Shown piece after piece: positions 1,335 through 8,857 of a stretch of DNA of 9,004 nt; the stretch's first letter is position 1, and the number at the start of each line of letters is the position of its first letter. Made by a program: the position numbers and the translations under genes. This stretch comes from Candidatus Woesearchaeota archaeon. Its GTDB lineage: Archaea > Nanoarchaeota > Nanoarchaeia > Woesearchaeales > UBA11576. Location: assembly GCA_013331125.1 (NCBI GenBank), contig DUGW01000044.1:1-9004 (forward strand), written 5' to 3'. The notes beneath the pieces are model-generated. The model was not told the DNA's origin, made no database searches, and saw only the letters and a program-made list of their open reading frames with translations.

Positions 1335-3371
1335 TTATCTCTTATGATGTGCCCTTATCGTAGATATCAGGCTCTCCTTATCCAGGACAGACATGCGGTA
1401 AAGGTCATCAGGTTTACCAGAATGGCTGAAGTTACGGACACCCATGTTCAGGACAAGAGGCTGGTTCCTGGTCCTGTACAATCGCGAGGTGACCACAGGA
1501 GCCATGCCTGTGAATGAACCCCCAAAGTTACCGACATAATGGTCTTCATAGGTCATCACAAACCTTGTGTTCCCGTCGACTGCAGTGTGGAAGATGCCAT
1601 CAGCAGGCTCAAGAGGGGTAGAACAGTTCACGACAGTGCAGTCAATCCCTTCCTTGTGGAGCTCATCAGCTGCAGAGACTGCCTTACCTATCAGGTTGCC
1701 ATAACTGAAGATGACGAACTCACTGCCATACTCACGGAGGACATCGACTTTGCCAGGACGCCACTGATAACTCTCGTCGAAGAAAGGCTCATCAGAGCCC
1801 TGCCGGGTTATGACAGGCATTGTCGAGCGGCCCATGGCCATGTGATGCGTGCCGTGATTCTGCGCCATGTAGTTCACGATGTGCTGCACCTGGTTGGCAT
1901 CAGCAGGGACAAAGGTCTGGATATCAGGAAGTGTAAGAAGATAGTTGATCTCCTGATGGGATGCGCCATCCTCGCCGACATCCAGGCCGCAATGGGTAGA
2001 GACGATCTTCAGGTTGGACCTGTTGAGGGAGTTCATACGCTGCTGACCATATACCTCACTCAAGGTGAGGACGCCGAAATCAGGCCAGAAGACAAGGACG
2101 CCTGGCTCTTGGGTAAGACCTGCGATGGACATCGAGCCAGCCATGGTGGCAGTGTGGTGCTCTGTTATCCCATTCTCGATGTAATTGTCCGGATACCTGT
2201 CCCTGAAACCTGTAAGGCCTACACTGCCTGCGAGGTCACAGTCGATGGCAGCGATCATGCAGCCATCAGGACGGGCTTTCCCGTCGGGAGTCATGTTGGC
2301 ATCTGCCAAGGCCTCAAGGGCAGACTTCCAGGCCTTGCGGCAGGCAGTCGGCTTGGTATAGAGAGTGAAAGGAGCAGGCCGGACCATCATCTTTATGCGA
2401 GGCATCGGATGATATTTCGGCGGAGCCTTCTTGCGTTCTTCCTGCGCATGCGCAAAACTGTCCCTTGCTTCATCCTCAGACATGCCGAGTTCAACCAGGG
2501 CATGGAGGGCATCCTTGCCATCAGCACTCTCAAAAGGAAGAGGCGCACCATGATACGCTGAAGTGTTTTCCATGAACGAGACACCTTGGCCCATGGTAGT
2601 ACGCATGCGCAAGGCATTAGGGCTATTGTTGATCGCGAACTCATACTCCTGGAATATCTCATGCAGGTCATGACCCTCCACATTCACAGGGCGGATGGAT
2701 GCATGCTGGAACAGGGACTGCTTGTCTACATGCATCCTCGAGTCAGTCGTGCCTGTTATCTGATAATTGTTCTCGTCGATGACAGGGATGATGTTGGTGA
2801 ATCTATGATGATTCATGGCCCTGAGGGCCTCCATGAACTGGCCCTTGGCAGTGCCGCCATCACCAGAGAAGACAAGATAAGGGGGAAGGGTTGCGTTCTT
2901 GCCCAGGAAAAGCCTGTCAGCATGGGCCCAGCCCACAGCGTCAGAGACGCCCTGGCCAAGAAGACCGCCATGTCTCGGTATGTGAGGCACTGCAAAAGTT
3001 ATATGACCTTCAAGAGGAGAACCTGCCTGACGGAAATGCCAGAGATCATCCTCAGGGAAGAAACCAAAAGCAGCCATGGTGGAGTACCAACCAGCAGAGT
3101 AATGGGCAGCATCATGGAAGAACTTGGGAGAGCCTTTAGCGAACGGGGACTCACGGTCAAGTCCGTGACGGAGAAGCTCAAACATGCCGACGACATAATG
3201 ATCAGCGGCGCTGAGCGGACCACCAGGATGACCAGACTGAGCAAGAGTGGTCATGAGGATGACATCCTGACGGACCCTTGTCGTAATGTCATGCAGAAGA
3301 CGGAAATCTTCTGTTGTCAGAGAAAAATGCTTATCTTTTGAACGTCCAAGAAGTTCTTCCAATTCAACCAA
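1335..3371 (-). CDS. Full-length, divergent transketolase-family thiamine-diphosphate enzyme
   Basis: The protein has 678 residues, the normal length of a one-chain transketolase. N-terminal half: SGHPGG (H48), AAHYS (H90), EGH (H123), LLGQG (about 137-141), the cofactor loop GDG (170-172) to ENN (200-202), and YHGAPL (H274). C-terminal half: the pyrimidine domain with the catalytic Glu in GITEHH (E404), GEDGASHQ (D468, H472) and MGRS, then a transketolase C-terminal domain from about 545. Such enzymes transfer two-carbon ketol units between sugar phosphates in the cytosol. Odd points: the cofactor loop reads GDGGTAKGQFMEAL, with Lys where transketolases usually have an acidic residue before the Gly, and ENN instead of the D(Y/N)N type, both closer to 2-oxoacid dehydrogenase E1 alpha. 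TTGPLGQG is altered to HGGLLGQG. The start is TTG (3371-3369), preceded by a GGGGGG ribosome site 8 nt away; the first internal ATG (codon 40) would remove conserved sequence. The fold is sure; the substrate is uncertain, because a second transketolase lies divergently next door. Confidence 0.88.
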   Translation of the reverse strand: MVELEELLGRSKDKHFSLTTEDFRLLHDITTRVRQDVILMTTLAQSGHPGGPLSAADHYVVGMFELLRHGLDRESPFAKGSPKFFHDAAHYSAGWYSTMAAFGFFPEDDLWHFRQAGSPLEGHITFAVPHIPRHGGLLGQGVSDAVGWAHADRLFLGKNATLPPYLVFSGDGGTAKGQFMEALRAMNHHRFTNIIPVIDENNYQITGTTDSRMHVDKQSLFQHASIRPVNVEGHDLHEIFQEYEFAINNSPNALRMRTTMGQGVSFMENTSAYHGAPLPFESADGKDALHALVELGMSEDEARDSFAHAQEERKKAPPKYHPMPRIKMMVRPAPFTLYTKPTACRKAWKSALEALADANMTPDGKARPDGCMIAAIDCDLAGSVGLTGFRDRYPDNYIENGITEHHTATMAGSMSIAGLTQEPGVLVFWPDFGVLTLSEVYGQQRMNSLNRSNLKIVSTHCGLDVGEDGASHQEINYLLTLPDIQTFVPADANQVQHIVNYMAQNHGTHHMAMGRSTMPVITRQGSDEPFFDESYQWRPGKVDVLREYGSEFVIFSYGNLIGKAVSAADELHKEGIDCTVVNCSTPLEPADGIFHTAVDGNTRFVMTYEDHYVGNFGGSFTGMAPVVTSRLYRTRNQPLVLNMGVRNFSHSGKPDDLYRMSVLDKESLISTIRAHHKR

Positions 3372-3534: not shown

Positions 3535-4386
3535 ATGATGCATAGGTTGAATGATATCAAAGACCTGAAGCTGATGGCCAATACTGTCAGGCAGGACCTG
3601 ATAAGGATGCTGGCAGAGGCAGGTTCAGGGCACACAGCAGGCCCACTGGGAATGGCAGACATGATGACTGCACTGCGCCTCCACTTTCTACGCATAGACC
3701 CCAAAAACCCAAAAGACCCAGACAGGGACATACTCATACTCTCGAACGGACATATCTGTCCGCTCCAATATGTATGCATGGCAGAGGCAGGATTCTTCCC
3801 AAAGAAAGAGCTGATGACACTGCGAAAGTTAGGATCCAGGCTGCAGGGACACCCGCACAGGAAGTCATTGCCGGGACTCGAGACCACAAGCGGACCACTG
3901 GGATGCGGGATAAGCCAGGCATGCGGGATTGCTCTGGCGCATCGATATGACAAGAAGAAGAGCAGGATATTCGTCATGACATCAGACGGAGAACACGAAG
4001 AAGGCAACACATGGGAAGGAGTGATGCTCGCCGCAAAGTACGACCTGGATATCATAGCGATAATGGACAGGAACAGGATACAGATAGGAGGAGACACAGA
4101 GAAAGTGATGCCACTGGATCCTGTCAAGGAAAAATACAAGGCATTCAACTGGAAAGTGTATGAGACTGACGGCCATGACATGAAGAAGATAGTCAGCACA
4201 CTGCAGAAGGCCTTGAAGCAGAAAGGGCCTCGGATGATAATAGCACACACAGTGCCGGGAAAAGACATCAGCTGGATTGAAGGAGACCATACCTGGCACG
4301 GAAAGACACCGTCGAAAGAAGAGGCAGAGAAGATGCTCGAAGAGCTGGAGAAAGTAAGGTTCAAGATAATAGCAGACAAGCGCTGA
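3535..4386 (+). CDS. tktA: Transketolase, N-terminal (diphosphate-binding) subunit
   Basis: The protein has 283 residues and is the thiamine-diphosphate PP-domain half of a split transketolase, as in many archaea. Motifs in order: SGHTAGPLGMAD (H33), SNGHICPL (H73), GHPHR (H106), TTSGPLGCG (118-125), SDGEHEEGNTWE (150-161; the Ser-for-Gly SDGE form is familiar in split subunits), DRN (178-180, metal/cofactor Asn N180) and DHTWHG (H255). The active site needs the C-terminal subunit, encoded 7 nt downstream; together they should interconvert pentose, tetrose, triose and hexose phosphates. Start choice: an in-frame TGA (3532-3534) directly precedes ATG 3535, and a second ATG is at 3538. The AGGGGTGA ribosome site (3527-3534) abuts the first ATG, so 3538 or TTG 3547 may be the true start; product length hardly changes. 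SGHT replaces the usual SGHP. The symbol is generic for the split gene and is less certain than the function. Confidence 0.93.
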   Translation: MMHRLNDIKDLKLMANTVRQDLIRMLAEAGSGHTAGPLGMADMMTALRLHFLRIDPKNPKDPDRDILILSNGHICPLQYVCMAEAGFFPKKELMTLRKLGSRLQGHPHRKSLPGLETTSGPLGCGISQACGIALAHRYDKKKSRIFVMTSDGEHEEGNTWEGVMLAAKYDLDIIAIMDRNRIQIGGDTEKVMPLDPVKEKYKAFNWKVYETDGHDMKKIVSTLQKALKQKGPRMIIAHTVPGKDISWIEGDHTWHGKTPSKEEAEKMLEELEKVRFKIIADKR

Positions 4387-4393
4387 GGAAGAG

Positions 4394-5410
4394 ATGGAAA
4401 AAAGAGAGACAAAATCAGGGACGGGAATCAAGCTGGCAAAGCAGCTGAACTCTGGTATCTTTGATAAGCCAGAGCTAGGCTCTACACGTGACGGGTTCGG
4501 AGAGGCGATGCTGGAGCTAGGCGCAAAAGACAAGAGAGTCTGGGCATTATGCGCAGATTTGACAGAGAGTGTCAAACTCCATGCGTTCCAGAACAAGTTC
4601 CCTGAACGGTTCGTCGAATGCGGGGTCGCAGAGCAGAACACAGTCACAGTCGCTTCGGGATTGGCAGCTGTAGGGAAGATACCATACGCAGCAAGCTTCG
4701 CCACATTCATACCAGGAAGATGCTGGGAACAGATAAGGACGACGATATGCTACAATGATGTGCCGGTCAAGATAGTCGGAGGGCATGCAGGGATAACGAC
4801 AGGTGACGACGGGGCAACACACCAGGCGATAGAAGACATAGCGACCATGAGAGCGATACCGAACATGGTCGTCGTGGTTCCATGCGACAAGGAAGAGATG
4901 AGGAAGGCGACCATAGCCGCTGCCAATGTGGACAAGCCGGTATACCTGCGCATGGGAAGAGACAAAGTAGTCACGTTGACGAAAAAGACGACACCATTCA
5001 AGATAGGCAAGGCAGAGATATTCGTCGAGGGAAAAGATGTCGTGCTAGTTGCATGCGGAAGGATGGTCTATGAGGCATTGGTCGCAGCGCGTGAGCTGGC
5101 AGATCAGGGGATAAGCGCGAAGGTGATCAACTGCCACACAGTAAAGCCGCTGGATTCAAAGACACTGGTCGCAGCAGCCAAGAGCTGCGGAGCAGTCGTG
5201 ACATGCGAAGAGCACAACATAATGGGGGGACTTGGCGGAGCAGTGGCAGAGCTGTTGAGCGAGGAATGCCCGGTGCCGATAGTCAGGGTCGGAGTGAGGG
5301 ATGTGTTCGGAGAGAGCGGAAAACCCGGTGAGTTGATGAAGAAATACGGATTGACGAGTTCTGATATTGCCAAGGCAGCTAGAAAAGCGATCGGGAATAA
5401 GAGAAAATAA
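4394..5410 (+). CDS. tktB: Transketolase, C-terminal (pyrimidine-binding and C) subunit
   Basis: The protein has 338 residues and is the partner of the N-terminal subunit. The pyrimidine-binding domain contains CADLTESV (53-60), ECGVAEQN with the catalytic Glu E80 that activates thiamine diphosphate, and TGDDGATHQ (D138/D139, H143), which lines the substrate channel. YLRMGR (184-189) follows, then the transketolase C-terminal domain from about 205 with CEEHNIMGGLGG (271-282) and GVRDVFGESGKP. The fold also matches E1 beta and DXS C-terminal halves, but pairing with a transketolase N-subunit settles the assignment. It starts 7 nt after the upstream stop with GAGG as ribosome site overlapping that stop, so the subunits are co-transcribed and probably made in equal amounts. 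The split is not a frameshift: there are separate start and ribosome sites and no decayed sequence at the junction. Acts in the cytosol in the non-oxidative pentose phosphate pathway. Confidence 0.93.
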   Translation: MEKRETKSGTGIKLAKQLNSGIFDKPELGSTRDGFGEAMLELGAKDKRVWALCADLTESVKLHAFQNKFPERFVECGVAEQNTVTVASGLAAVGKIPYAASFATFIPGRCWEQIRTTICYNDVPVKIVGGHAGITTGDDGATHQAIEDIATMRAIPNMVVVVPCDKEEMRKATIAAANVDKPVYLRMGRDKVVTLTKKTTPFKIGKAEIFVEGKDVVLVACGRMVYEALVAARELADQGISAKVINCHTVKPLDSKTLVAAAKSCGAVVTCEEHNIMGGLGGAVAELLSEECPVPIVRVGVRDVFGESGKPGELMKKYGLTSSDIAKAARKAIGNKRK

Positions 5411-6266: not shown

Positions 6267-6578
6267 TCACTTCCTGCGCTTTTTCCCTTTCTTCTCAATC
6301 TTGCTACAGATCGTCTCGAAACTCTTGTCCTGGATCCATCGCCAGTTAAGGATGATAAAGAGTATCAGGAATATCGCAAATGTCAGTGAGATGTACCAGT
6401 GGAATATCCTCCAGCTGGTACCGCTGATGCCCCAGAGAAGAGCCTCTTCATTGCCATTGCCTGCAGGGAACGCAAACCTGACTATCCCTGCTGTGGTTAT
6501 GGTGAGAAGAAAAAAGAAAAGGGCAAAACAACAGGTGATGACCTTGCAAGGCCTGAATTGACGGAGCCAGTCCCTCAT
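6267..6578 (-). CDS. Small two-helix membrane protein, DUF4405-like
   Basis: The protein has 103 residues and two hydrophobic segments (about 12-33 and 57-78), followed by a strongly basic tail ending KKGKKRRK that probably stays in the cytoplasm. The second segment, WRIFHWYISLTFAIF then LILFIILNWRWI, resembles DUF4405 domains, which are cytochrome-b-like helices. In those, a His normally also precedes the xxLNW motif; here that position is Phe, and only H60 remains, so haem binding is doubtful. Start at ATG 6578 with a strong GGAGGA ribosome site (6587-6582). The ATG overlaps the stop of the upstream acidic mini-gene as ATGA, indicating translational coupling in one transcript with it and probably the histone. 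It converges on the Lrp gene. Membrane location is well supported; the family link is from memory of the motif. Confidence 0.7.
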   Translation of the reverse strand: MRDWLRQFRPCKVITCCFALFFFLLTITTAGIVRFAFPAGNGNEEALLWGISGTSWRIFHWYISLTFAIFLILFIILNWRWIQDKSFETICSKIEKKGKKRRK

Positions 6579-6667
6579 TCTTCCTCCGAGCCCTCGTCAT
6601 CAGGGTCGAGAAAATCATCAAAGCCTTCAGATTCCCAATCATCATCCTCAAAATCATCCTTGGGCAT
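6575..6667 (-). CDS. Very acidic 30-residue mini-protein between histone and membrane-protein genes
   Basis: This short frame starts at ATG 6667 and ends at TGA 6577-6575, sharing ATGA with the next gene. The product begins MPKDDFEDDDWE and ends DDEGSEEE: 17 of 30 residues are Asp or Glu, one is Lys, and four are aromatic (F6, W11, F16, F19). It has no known fold and is probably disordered. Evidence that it is translated: AGGTGA (6678-6673) lies 5 nt before the ATG, the best ribosome site in this part of the window, and the stop/start overlap with the downstream gene is typical of coupling. The frame is open upstream to ATG 6703 (12 residues more) without a ribosome site, so 6667 is preferred. 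The histone stop lies 41 nt upstream on the same strand. Acidic stretches with spaced aromatics are seen in eukaryotic histone chaperones, so binding to the histone is an attractive but untested inference. Confidence 0.65.
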   Translation of the reverse strand: MPKDDFEDDDWESEGFDDFLDPDDEGSEEE

Positions 6668-6708
6668 GGTGCTCACCTTCTTTGCGCTCTCTTCACAGAG
6701 CATCAATA

Positions 6709-6921
6709 TCAGTATTTCGAAGCCAGCTTCACATCACTTGCCTTGACAGTCACACGGCCGGAATGCTTGGCGAGTGAGACTGCGCGGTCAGCGATCTCAG
6801 AAGCGATATCCTCGACAATATCTTTCAATGCTGCTTTAGCTTTGTCAGAAGCCCTCTCTGCACCGCAGTTCTTCAATATCTTTTCCATTGCAGCCAATGG
6901 AAGCAGTTTTTGTGTTGCCAT
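6709..6921 (-). CDS. Archaeal histone (minimal histone fold)
   Basis: The protein has 70 residues, the standard HMf-type length with no tails. It contains helix 1 (about 5-19, with LPLAAMEKILK), the GAERAS loop (20-25), the long central helix (about 26-53), SGRVTVKASDV (54-64; the second DNA-contacting loop) and the last short helix ending at K69-Y70. It should form dimers and longer polymers that wrap chromosomal DNA. The start ATG 6921 has a GGGGGG ribosome site 6 nt upstream, and a TATA box about 60 nt upstream. The acidic mini-gene and a membrane-protein gene follow on the same strand. The final residues are short (LASKY) compared with the RRFKK-type ends of methanogen histones. Identity is clear from the GAER...SGR.T.KA.D pattern. 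Confidence 0.96.
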   Translation of the reverse strand: MATQKLLPLAAMEKILKNCGAERASDKAKAALKDIVEDIASEIADRAVSLAKHSGRVTVKASDVKLASKY

Positions 6922-6927
6922 TTCATT

Positions 6928-6988
6928 CCCCCCTAATTATTAATTGAATATGAAAACCCACTAAAATAACTGGTTTTAACCATATAAA
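6928..6988 (-). promoter_or_regulatory. Histone promoter (TATA) and ribosome-binding site
   Basis: On the minus strand, TTTATATGG (6988-6980) is a good TATA box, placing transcription start near 6958 with a leader of about 37 nt. GGGGGG at 6933-6928 is 6 nt from the ATG. TGGTT-AA-AACCA (minus strand, 6982-6971), an inverted repeat just downstream of the TATA box, could be an operator. Unlike several neighbours this gene is not leaderless. Confidence 0.55.
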
Positions 6989-6991
6989 CAA

Positions 6992-7108
6992 GGGTTATTT
7001 TTATTGTTTTCGGTTTAAGGGGCGGATTTTTGGTATTTTTGGGTTTTAAGGGCTGTTTTGGGGTTATTTGGGTTATTAGTGGTGGTTCTGTGGGGTGGAA
7101 GTTAGGGG
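6992..7108 (+). other. Strongly G/T-biased strand with G-quadruplex motif and GGGTTA repeats
   Basis: In 7011-7110 I count 42 G, 42 T, 12 A and 4 C. Four G-tracts at 7041-7043, 7050-7052, 7060-7063 and 7070-7072, separated by loops of 6, 7 and 6 nt, satisfy the usual G3+N1-7 quadruplex pattern; more G4 tracts occur at 7092-7095 and 7105-7108. GGGTTA occurs at 6992, 7061 and 7070, and GGTTT(T)AA at 6972, 7012 and 7042. No reading frame or RNA gene is recognisable in it. It lies between the divergent histone and PEP-synthase-like genes, so a regulatory or replication-linked role is possible. Confidence 0.6.
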
Positions 7109-7183: not shown

Positions 7184-8857
7184 ATGGCAAGGAGTCTTAC
7201 AGGGAAGGCAAGGGGATTGGAGCGATTAGTAGAAAGCACTTCTTTAGGCTATACTGTTCCAGAACATAGGACAATAGACCTTACCTATTTTGAGATCATG
7301 GAGAAACAGAAGCAGATGGCAGCACTTGCTTCAGTGCTCAGTGGAAAACCATATGTCCCAACAAGATTACCTTCTCATTTCAATGACATTGTGTCTGACA
7401 TGCTGGCACATTTTGATGGCAGACAGGTCATTGTGAGATCAAGTTCATTGCATGAGGATGGAGAGAATTCATTCGCAGGTATATACGAGTCATTTGTGGT
7501 TTCAGAACCTGATACTGAGAAACTGGCAGAAGCGATATTCAAAGTATATGCTTCAATGAATACCCGGAAAGCGATACAGTACAGAAAGGAGCACGGGGTT
7601 GAAGATGACAAGATGGAAGTGATACTCCAGGAGTATGTTGAACCTGAATGGAAAGGGGTCATGTACACATCCAACCCAAGCTATCCAGACGACCTGACAA
7701 TCGAGTTCACTGACAGCGAAGGTTCTGTTGTGGATGGCACAGGAAACTCATTCATTGTTGATTTTGACAAGAAGACAGGCGAGTGTGTCTTTAGAAGTGA
7801 AAACTATCAAAATGAATTTCTATTTAAACCACCATTTGATGCTGATGAATTGGCACAGATAGGCATCGAGCTAGAAAAATTGAATGGTGCATCAGACATT
7901 GAGTTCGCTGTGAAAGATGGAAAGTTACACTTGTTACAATCAAGACCTATCACTGACCTGGAAGAGCCAGAGGATGTGGAGATCCCTGACTATAAACCAG
8001 AGCAATACATCGGCTCGACAAAAGTAAGAAGGGGTAAGGGAAAGGTGACCTTGCCTGTTGTCCGAGTCGAGGATTTCAGCCAATTTGTGAGAAAAATCGA
8101 TATGTTGCGCGAAATCAATCCAGATATCCATAAGGAGGCATTGGAACACTATTTCCATGGTGTAATGGATGATGATAGGCGTTACAAGAAGGGGTATGTC
8201 CTACTGATGCCACACTTCAGGGAAACAGGGATGGATATGTACTCATTGTTTGTACGGAACATTCCAGATGACCCGACTGCAGATAATCTTACTCCTCATA
8301 AGAAAGCAGTCATAACAACGAATTGCAATCTTCTTGCGTCACATGCAATGACTGTAGCAAGAGAGAAGGGTGTTGCTTATGCAGGTTTTCGATCTTCAGA
8401 GGATATGTTCGGGGACGTAGCAACAGGAGATGTTGTGTCGATCTATTTCAAGGGCAGGGAAGCGCATGTCTATCGTGAAGAAAGGACACTTACAATCAAG
8501 GATACCAGACCAGACGTATCTTTCGAGGTCATTGAAGAAGAGGATGGCACTATACACTTCCGAGGGTCTGAGGATTTCGGTCCTCTTGCTGAACCTTATG
8601 TAGCTGACATGTTGAGATTCCTAAATGAAAGAGGATACTATACCTGGACATACGAGTCAAATCGTGGTGTCATGGGAGGAAGGTTCACAAATGAGCATGG
8701 TGAACAGCTTGTATTGCATATGTCCAGGAGCGTAGGCAGTTCTACAGCATGGCGATTTGCTCCAGTAAGCTATTGTAGAGCCCAAGGGATAGACACATTG
8801 ACAGAAAAGGAATTGGAAGACATAACATTGGAGTATGCAAACTATCTTGATTCGTGA
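7184..8857 (+). CDS. PEP-synthase-like ATP-grasp/phosphohistidine protein lacking the PEP-binding barrel
   Basis: The protein has 557 residues, against nearly 800 for true PEP synthase. Residues about 1-260 are the PPDK_N ATP-grasp: KARGLERL (K8), VIVRSSSLHEDG (R85, E91, D92), SFAGIYESF, ILQEYV...KGVMYTSNP (147-165) and DIEFAV...LLQSRPIT (238-257). Residues about 376-430 are the swivelling PEP-utiliser domain: LLASHAMTVAREKG with the phospho-acceptor H387, then GDVVSI and HVY. Known relatives use the His domain to carry phosphate from ATP to pyruvate, water/AMP or a drug. The C-terminal TIM barrel that binds pyruvate/PEP is absent; instead there is a unique segment of about 115 residues (443-557, with TWTYESNRG and AWRFAPVSYCRAQG). 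About 130 residues separate the LQSRPIT end from H387, so a small extra domain (about 285-370) may hold the acceptor. Rifampicin phosphotransferases show a comparable barrel-less plan. Third codon positions are visibly more A/T-rich than in the transketolase genes. Domains are sure; the substrate is unknown. Confidence 0.85.
   Translation: MARSLTGKARGLERLVESTSLGYTVPEHRTIDLTYFEIMEKQKQMAALASVLSGKPYVPTRLPSHFNDIVSDMLAHFDGRQVIVRSSSLHEDGENSFAGIYESFVVSEPDTEKLAEAIFKVYASMNTRKAIQYRKEHGVEDDKMEVILQEYVEPEWKGVMYTSNPSYPDDLTIEFTDSEGSVVDGTGNSFIVDFDKKTGECVFRSENYQNEFLFKPPFDADELAQIGIELEKLNGASDIEFAVKDGKLHLLQSRPITDLEEPEDVEIPDYKPEQYIGSTKVRRGKGKVTLPVVRVEDFSQFVRKIDMLREINPDIHKEALEHYFHGVMDDDRRYKKGYVLLMPHFRETGMDMYSLFVRNIPDDPTADNLTPHKKAVITTNCNLLASHAMTVAREKGVAYAGFRSSEDMFGDVATGDVVSIYFKGREAHVYREERTLTIKDTRPDVSFEVIEEEDGTIHFRGSEDFGPLAEPYVADMLRFLNERGYYTWTYESNRGVMGGRFTNEHGEQLVLHMSRSVGSSTAWRFAPVSYCRAQGIDTLTEKELEDITLEYANYLDS

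What the first reader, a model, noticed from the sequence alone, without database searches (positions are those of the whole stretch)
6575..6921. Histone gene followed by a 30-residue acidic/aromatic mini-protein gene
Sequence: the minus-strand mini-gene has a strong AGGTGA ribosome site, an ATGA overlap with the next gene, 17 of 30 acidic residues and four spaced aromatics, 41 nt after the histone stop. Known: eukaryotic histone chaperones often bind histones through short acidic segments with anchoring aromatic residues. Inference: this could be a miniature archaeal histone-binding protein, co-produced with the histone. It would be missed by size cut-offs in gene calling.
Basis: partly seen in the sequence, partly recalled or inferred. 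Interest (0 to 1): 0.8.

Follow-up and report, generated by a model that had tools for sequence, protein, structure and literature searches.

The report
Acidic mini-protein paired with archaeal histone
A tiny, strongly acidic gene sits right behind one histone gene in a small group of uncultured archaea, is kept by natural selection, and may make a miniature histone-handling protein, a kind of helper that papers describe as not yet reported from archaea.

Summary
A 30-residue frame (17 D/E, 4 aromatics) starts 41 nt after the histone stop, has an AGGTGA ribosome site and an ATGA overlap with the next gene. It is a real gene: four genomes of one DPANN family carry an acidic 27-29 residue frame directly behind the same histone. 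The next gene and the register to the histone differ, so the link is to the histone. A profile finds it in 4 of 352 genomes of the order, only there; 0 of 164 other histone places have such a frame. The linked histones form one clade (100/99) with a private A24 and a C-terminal aromatic, besides V57 (HMfB residue 53, a DNA-contact position), shared with the sister group. Best explanation: a co-produced acidic micro-protein that masks the histone's DNA-binding face, working like eukaryotic acidic-peptide chaperones without being homologous to them. Binding is untested; I put it at about one half.

The parts
6982..7013 (-). promoter-like stretch before the histone: CCGAAAACAATAAAAATAACC (7013 downwards) and TTTATAT (6988-6982)
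   Evidence: A near-identical block CCGAAAATATTAAAAATAA stands before the histones of L001, L002 and L003, not seen in L088. By eye; no promoter assay or archaeal promoter model was run.
6709..6921 (-). histone gene, 70 aa, linked clade with A24, V57, Y70
   Evidence: Pfam CBFD_NFYB_HMF E 2.3e-12; nearest solved chains HMfA/HMfB/HPhA; signature residues
6673..6678 (-). ribosome-binding site AGGTGA, 5 nt before the mini-gene ATG
   Evidence: relatives have GGGGGTGA (L088), GAGGGTGG (L001, L002), GGAGG (L003) at a similar place
6575..6667 (-). acidic mini-gene, 30 aa plus stop
   Evidence: Homologous acidic frames behind the same histone in L088, L001, L002, L003; purifying selection; profile matches only these copies in 352 genomes of the order
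6267..6578 (-). DUF4405 membrane protein, 103 aa, start overlaps the mini-gene stop (ATGA)
   Evidence: Pfam DUF4405 E 1.1e-6; same order and overlap in L088; not the next gene in L001-L003. Probably not part of the conserved unit.

Best explanation
The mini-gene makes a stand-alone, disordered, strongly acidic micro-protein from the same message as the histone. Most likely it binds the histone dimer in place of DNA: the acidic run covers the basic L1/L2 DNA-binding face and one or more aromatic side chains anchor it. It would keep newly made histone soluble and off DNA until it is loaded, or hold a pool back. Shown here: the gene is real, under purifying selection, and found only beside one histone clade. 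Inferred: shared transcript, disorder, histone binding, aromatic anchoring, masking of the DNA contacts.
For: Linked to the histone in five of five known cases while the next gene and the reading register change. Purifying selection: NG86 omega 0.031 for L001/L002, against 0.035 for their histones. Only acidic frames of this kind in 169 histone places, and only matches of the profile in 352 genomes of the order. Charges: mini -12 to -16, histone +2 to +4 per chain. All four aromatic positions of the window are aromatic in L088. The linked histones are one clade with A24 in 5 of 5 against 0 of 101 and an aromatic residue 70 in 5 of 5 against 1 of 101. Known peptide chaperones have the same chemistry (passages of PMC6544321, PMC10325919, PMC6629675).
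Against: No binding evidence. The D/E-D/E-aromatic pattern occurs in 4 of 5 copies but not above shuffled expectation (P 0.08, 0.88, 0.42, 0.54, 1.0). Aromatic positions are not the same between the window/L088 type and the L001-L003 type, and L001 has R where L002 has W. No sequence kinship to any solved chain or Pfam family. A24, V57 and Y70 may be shared by descent only, since the five are one clade; V57 also occurs without the mini-gene (5 of 101). Archaeal histones are described as assembling without dedicated chaperones (PMC6867714, passage), and the other histone paralogue of the same genomes has no such gene.
Confidence: 0.5

Rival explanations
1. A real acidic micro-protein that rides in the histone operon but acts on another partner (RNA polymerase, ribosome, another DNA-binding protein) or as a general disordered acidic protein.
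For: Composition alone does not name a partner; the aromatic pattern is not above chance.
Against: It is found only directly behind this histone clade, never elsewhere in the 352 genomes searched, while the other neighbour changes.
Confidence: 0.28
2. A regulatory frame: its translation couples or tunes the downstream gene (DUF4405) or the stability of the histone message, and the peptide itself matters little.
For: ATGA overlap with DUF4405 in the window and L088; T-rich spacer between histone and mini-gene in L001, L002 and L088 that could attenuate transcription.
Against: L001-L003 keep the mini-gene with no DUF4405 behind it and with a TTTATATA box before the next gene; selection is on amino acids, including aromatics; the mini-protein is 72% identical between window and L088 but the DUF4405 proteins only 31%.
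Confidence: 0.1
3. A small acidic partner of the DUF4405 membrane protein.
For: Adjacent with overlap in 2 of the 5 loci.
Against: In the other 3 of 5 loci the next gene is a 66-aa basic protein, not DUF4405; DUF4405 elsewhere in those genomes was not searched for.
Confidence: 0.05
4. Not a gene: a chance acidic frame, or a tail of the histone made by stop-codon readthrough.
For: It is short; in L001 and L002 the frame is in register with the histone.
Against: Third-position-biased change in two independent pairs; own ribosome site in all five; spacers of 41, 67, 33, 33 and 16 nt give three registers.
Confidence: 0.02

Closest known systems
Eukaryotic acidic-peptide H2A-H2B chaperone segments with a DEF/Y motif or aromatic anchor (Chz1, Swr1, YL1/Swc2, Anp32e, Spt16 acidic segment, APLF, MIER1)
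   Same: Short acidic stretch with aromatics; in the known cases acids cover the DNA-binding surface and an aromatic enters a shallow pocket; Chz1 is unstructured when free (passages).
   Different: Here the whole protein is 27-30 residues, encoded beside an archaeal homodimeric histone; no sequence kinship; the known ones are segments of larger proteins; binding here is untested.
Archaeal histones of the HMf type (partner gene)
   Same: 70-aa histone fold; residues aligned with R19, T54, H49, D59, L46 and L62 of HMf are kept (alignment, numbered by hand; roles from PMC6136690, PMC7776873 passages).
   Different: Residue 53 is V, not K; residue 20 is A, not V; C-terminal aromatic.
DNA-mimic proteins that sequester DNA-binding proteins (recalled, no call)
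   Same: A small acidic chain competing with DNA for a basic protein.
   Different: Known ones are folded and mostly of phage or bacterial origin; this one is too short to fold alone.

Membership tests
Archaeal histone (partner gene) | Histone fold | tested here: met
   Pfam PF00808 47.4 bits against cut-off 21.4; phmmer to HMfA E 6.7e-17
Acidic-peptide histone chaperones (DEF/Y or aromatic-anchor type) | Short, highly acidic segment | tested here: met
   46-57% D/E in the five copies
Acidic-peptide histone chaperones (DEF/Y or aromatic-anchor type) | Consecutive D/E followed by an aromatic residue | tested here: inconclusive
   [DE][DE][FYW] in 4 of 5 copies (not L003), but not above shuffled expectation
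Acidic-peptide histone chaperones (DEF/Y or aromatic-anchor type) | Sequence kinship to a known chaperone | tested here: not met
   No Pfam match of the 30-mer; profile of five against solved chains: 0 matches up to E 10. The known members are themselves described as ancestrally unrelated (PMC6544321 passage).
Acidic-peptide histone chaperones (DEF/Y or aromatic-anchor type) | Binds histone dimer and keeps DNA off | not testable with these tools
   No two-chain prediction or assay on hand
DUF4405-associated small protein | Always beside a DUF4405 gene | tested here: not met
   2 of 5 loci: window and L088 yes; L001, L002, L003 no

The most novel reading that the evidence does not exclude
The first archaeal histone chaperone: a 27-30 residue protein dedicated to one histone variant, arisen once in a DPANN lineage together with changes in the histone's L1 loop and C-terminus, and convergent with the acid-plus-aromatic peptides by which eukaryotes keep H2A-H2B off DNA.
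Probability: 0.33. Interest if true: 0.9.

Novelty: new variant of a known kind. Interest (0 to 1): 0.72.

Why it matters
[quoted passage not shown] A 30-residue gene beside its histone, both small enough to synthesise, makes the question testable in one binding experiment. If true it shows how little sequence a histone chaperone needs and that the acidic-peptide solution arose more than once.

Tried and rejected
Viral contigs: no relative with the window histone alone, one distant histone, L081, with the alignment, without an acidic frame. Rfam and tRNA scans of the window: nothing. The mini-protein profile against solved structures: nothing. Structure prediction was not run: only single chains are offered, and a lone histone chain with its dimer face open would not give a meaningful docking.

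Chance, readthrough, DUF4405 coupling and a leader frame were considered and ranked low, as given under the rivals. Literature searches for prior reports listed no paper whose title or abstract start tells of an acidic small protein beside an archaeal histone gene; they cover open-licence PMC papers only, with few terms, and the lists were capped. The equation of histone A24 with a pocket residue of H2B (named in PMC6544321) was made by eye against a recalled H2B sequence; it is a lead, not a test, and no score rests on it.

Full report
What is in the window. On the minus strand a 70-aa histone gene (6921-6709; Pfam CBFD_NFYB_HMF; nearest solved chains HMfA, HMfB and HPhA) is followed after 41 nt by ATG 6667, MPKDDFEDDDWESEGFDDFLDPDDEGSEEE, stop ending at 6575, with AGGTGA five bases before the ATG and an ATGA overlap with a 103-aa DUF4405 membrane protein. 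The frame also runs open upstream to an ATG at 6703 (42 aa, the form held in the protein database). L088's copy has only four in-frame residues between a stop and its ATG, and the ribosome site stands before 6667, so the 30-aa form is the likely product.

Relatives. The three closest, L001 (89%), L002 (87%) and L003 (81%), have a short acidic frame directly behind the histone stop: MGMLDDGRDDDFGGGIEDPFDDDNNEEE, MGMLDDGWDDDFGGGIEDPFDDDNNEEE and MGIFDDKGPADFDDPFESDDTEEEEEE. Relatives of these genomes gave a fourth, L088 in G006 (histone 90%): MFREFEDDDWDSDGYGDFEDPDDEGSEEE. Window and L088 agree in 21 of 30 aligned columns; the window's four aromatic positions are all aromatic in L088 (F16 is Y), and the ATGA overlap with a DUF4405 gene is kept. 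The titles of the three named records say Nanoarchaeota archaeon, Candidatus Woesearchaeota archaeon and archaeon. No whole genome is held for the window.

Is it selected? Between L001 and L002, 6 of 28 codons differ (plus TAA/TAG): 5 synonymous, 1 not (R8W). NG86 omega is 0.031, against 0.035 for the two histones; random changes give at most one non-synonymous of six with P 0.0017. Between window and L088 the 22 base changes fall 2, 5 and 15 on codon positions 1, 2 and 3; 10.5 are non-synonymous, pN 0.14, pS 0.85 (saturated, so no omega); the neutral simulation gives P 0.00025, and 0 of 20,000 draws for codons 6-30, where conservation is best. The first five codons of this pair are not conserved. 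The numbers are small because the gene is.

To what is it linked? The next gene differs: DUF4405 in the window and L088, a 66-aa basic protein behind a TTTATATA box in L001-L003. Spacers to the histone are 41 (window), 67 (L088), 33, 33 (L001, L002) and 16 nt (L003), giving three registers, so readthrough is not the shared mechanism. Of ten window genes compared with L001-L003 and a 12-kb region of G006 (L126), only histone (all four) and DUF4405 (L126) had matches; flanks held differ in length and L001 and L002 have little DNA upstream (the mini-gene was not put to that test). Among 169 distinct histone places held (28 duplicates dropped), a frame of 18-80 aa with at least 35% D/E starting within 200 nt occurs behind 5, the five named, and behind 0 of 164 others; 64 of these come from samples around two other archaea, the class of G353 and the phylum of G354. 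A profile of the five mini-proteins matches only these copies: 4 of 10 genomes in the family (E up to 1), 4 of 352 in the order (E up to 0.01), 2 of 371 in an even sample of the phylum (E up to 0.1); the samples overlap. In the family of ten, G005, G007, G009 and G010 have a histone of this general type without an acidic frame, and in G004 and G008 only the other paralogue was found, so absence there may be gaps in assembly. The other paralogue has no acidic frame in any of the ten loci seen (L085-L087, L115-L121; for L086 only 130 nt were held).

The histone side. The five linked histones form one clade (100/99) with a stem of 0.64 changes per column; other inner branches reach 0.66, so the stem is long but not unique. 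The tree has 72 rows and only 70 columns, many forks are open and the bootstrap had not settled. Of 106 distinct histones compared (duplicates and rows over 110 aa dropped), A24 is in 5 of 5 linked and 0 of 101 others, an aromatic residue 70 in 5 of 5 and 1 of 101 (L039), V57 in 5 of 5 and 5 of 101, four of these in the sister group (L004, L005, L014, L015). V57 is HMf residue 53 by the alignment. Residues 10, 19, 53 and 54 are said to contribute much to DNA binding (PMC7776873, passages), and E18 of one monomer salt-bridges K53 of the other (PMC8775648, passages), so the L1-L2 DNA face is altered in this clade. As all five share one stem, this is correlation without independent repeats. The linked histones are nearer to L004, L005, L014 and L015 than to those of G005, G007, G009 and G010 of the same family, so transfer or hidden paralogy is possible. 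In L004 and L005 the gene behind the histone is the translation factor IF5A.

Mechanism. A chain of 27-30 residues with 46-57% D/E and two to five aromatics is unlikely to fold alone. Its constant neighbour and probable co-product is a DNA-binding histone (net +2 to +4 per chain against -12 to -16). No TATA-like stretch was seen by eye between histone and mini-gene, and a shared upstream block precedes the histones of the window and L001-L003. Several eukaryotic proteins bind H2A-H2B through such segments: acids cover the DNA-binding surface and an aromatic enters a shallow pocket (passages of PMC6544321, PMC10325919, PMC6629675); Chz1 is described as unstructured when free and as relieving aggregation of free histone. 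I therefore think it most likely that the micro-protein shields newly made histone and tunes its loading on DNA. Against over-reading: the D/E-D/E-aromatic pattern is in 4 of 5 copies but at the frequency that shuffling gives, aromatic positions shift between the two sub-types and L001 lacks the W of L002, no sequence kinship was found, and archaeal nucleosomes are described as assembling without dedicated chaperones (PMC6867714, passage). I put the gene's reality at about 0.97 and histone binding at about 0.5.

Novelty. Two papers state that archaeal histone chaperones were not known (PMC10796010, PMC7990501; passages). The searches listed no report of an acidic small protein beside an archaeal histone. 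By mechanism it would be a new variant of the acidic-peptide chaperone; by sequence it is a new gene family limited, as far as searched, to one lineage.

Noticed in passing
window 1335-3371 (-) and 3535-5410 (+): Two transketolase-type enzymes side by side: one full-length, 678 aa, and one split into an N-terminal and a C-terminal gene.
   Followed up: no
window 7184-8857 (+): A 557-aa protein with only the ATP-binding domain of pyruvate phosphate dikinase (PPDK_N), divergent from the histone gene.
   Followed up: no
L001:652-843, L002 and L003:6364-6555 (+): A conserved 63-66 aa basic protein (MGSIYFTKRLL...) directly behind the mini-gene, with only sub-threshold Pfam matches.
   Followed up: partly
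L004 and L005, behind the histone: The histone is followed by a gene for translation factor IF5A; similar frames stand behind many other histones of this order by eye. The mini-gene takes that place in the linked clade.
   Followed up: partly
L001, L002 and L088, spacer between histone and mini-gene: T-rich runs between histone stop and mini-gene, absent in L003 and the window; possible partial terminators setting the histone to mini-protein ratio.
   Followed up: no
L081:4257-4457: A histone-fold frame (37% identity) on a contig of the viral collection.
   Followed up: no
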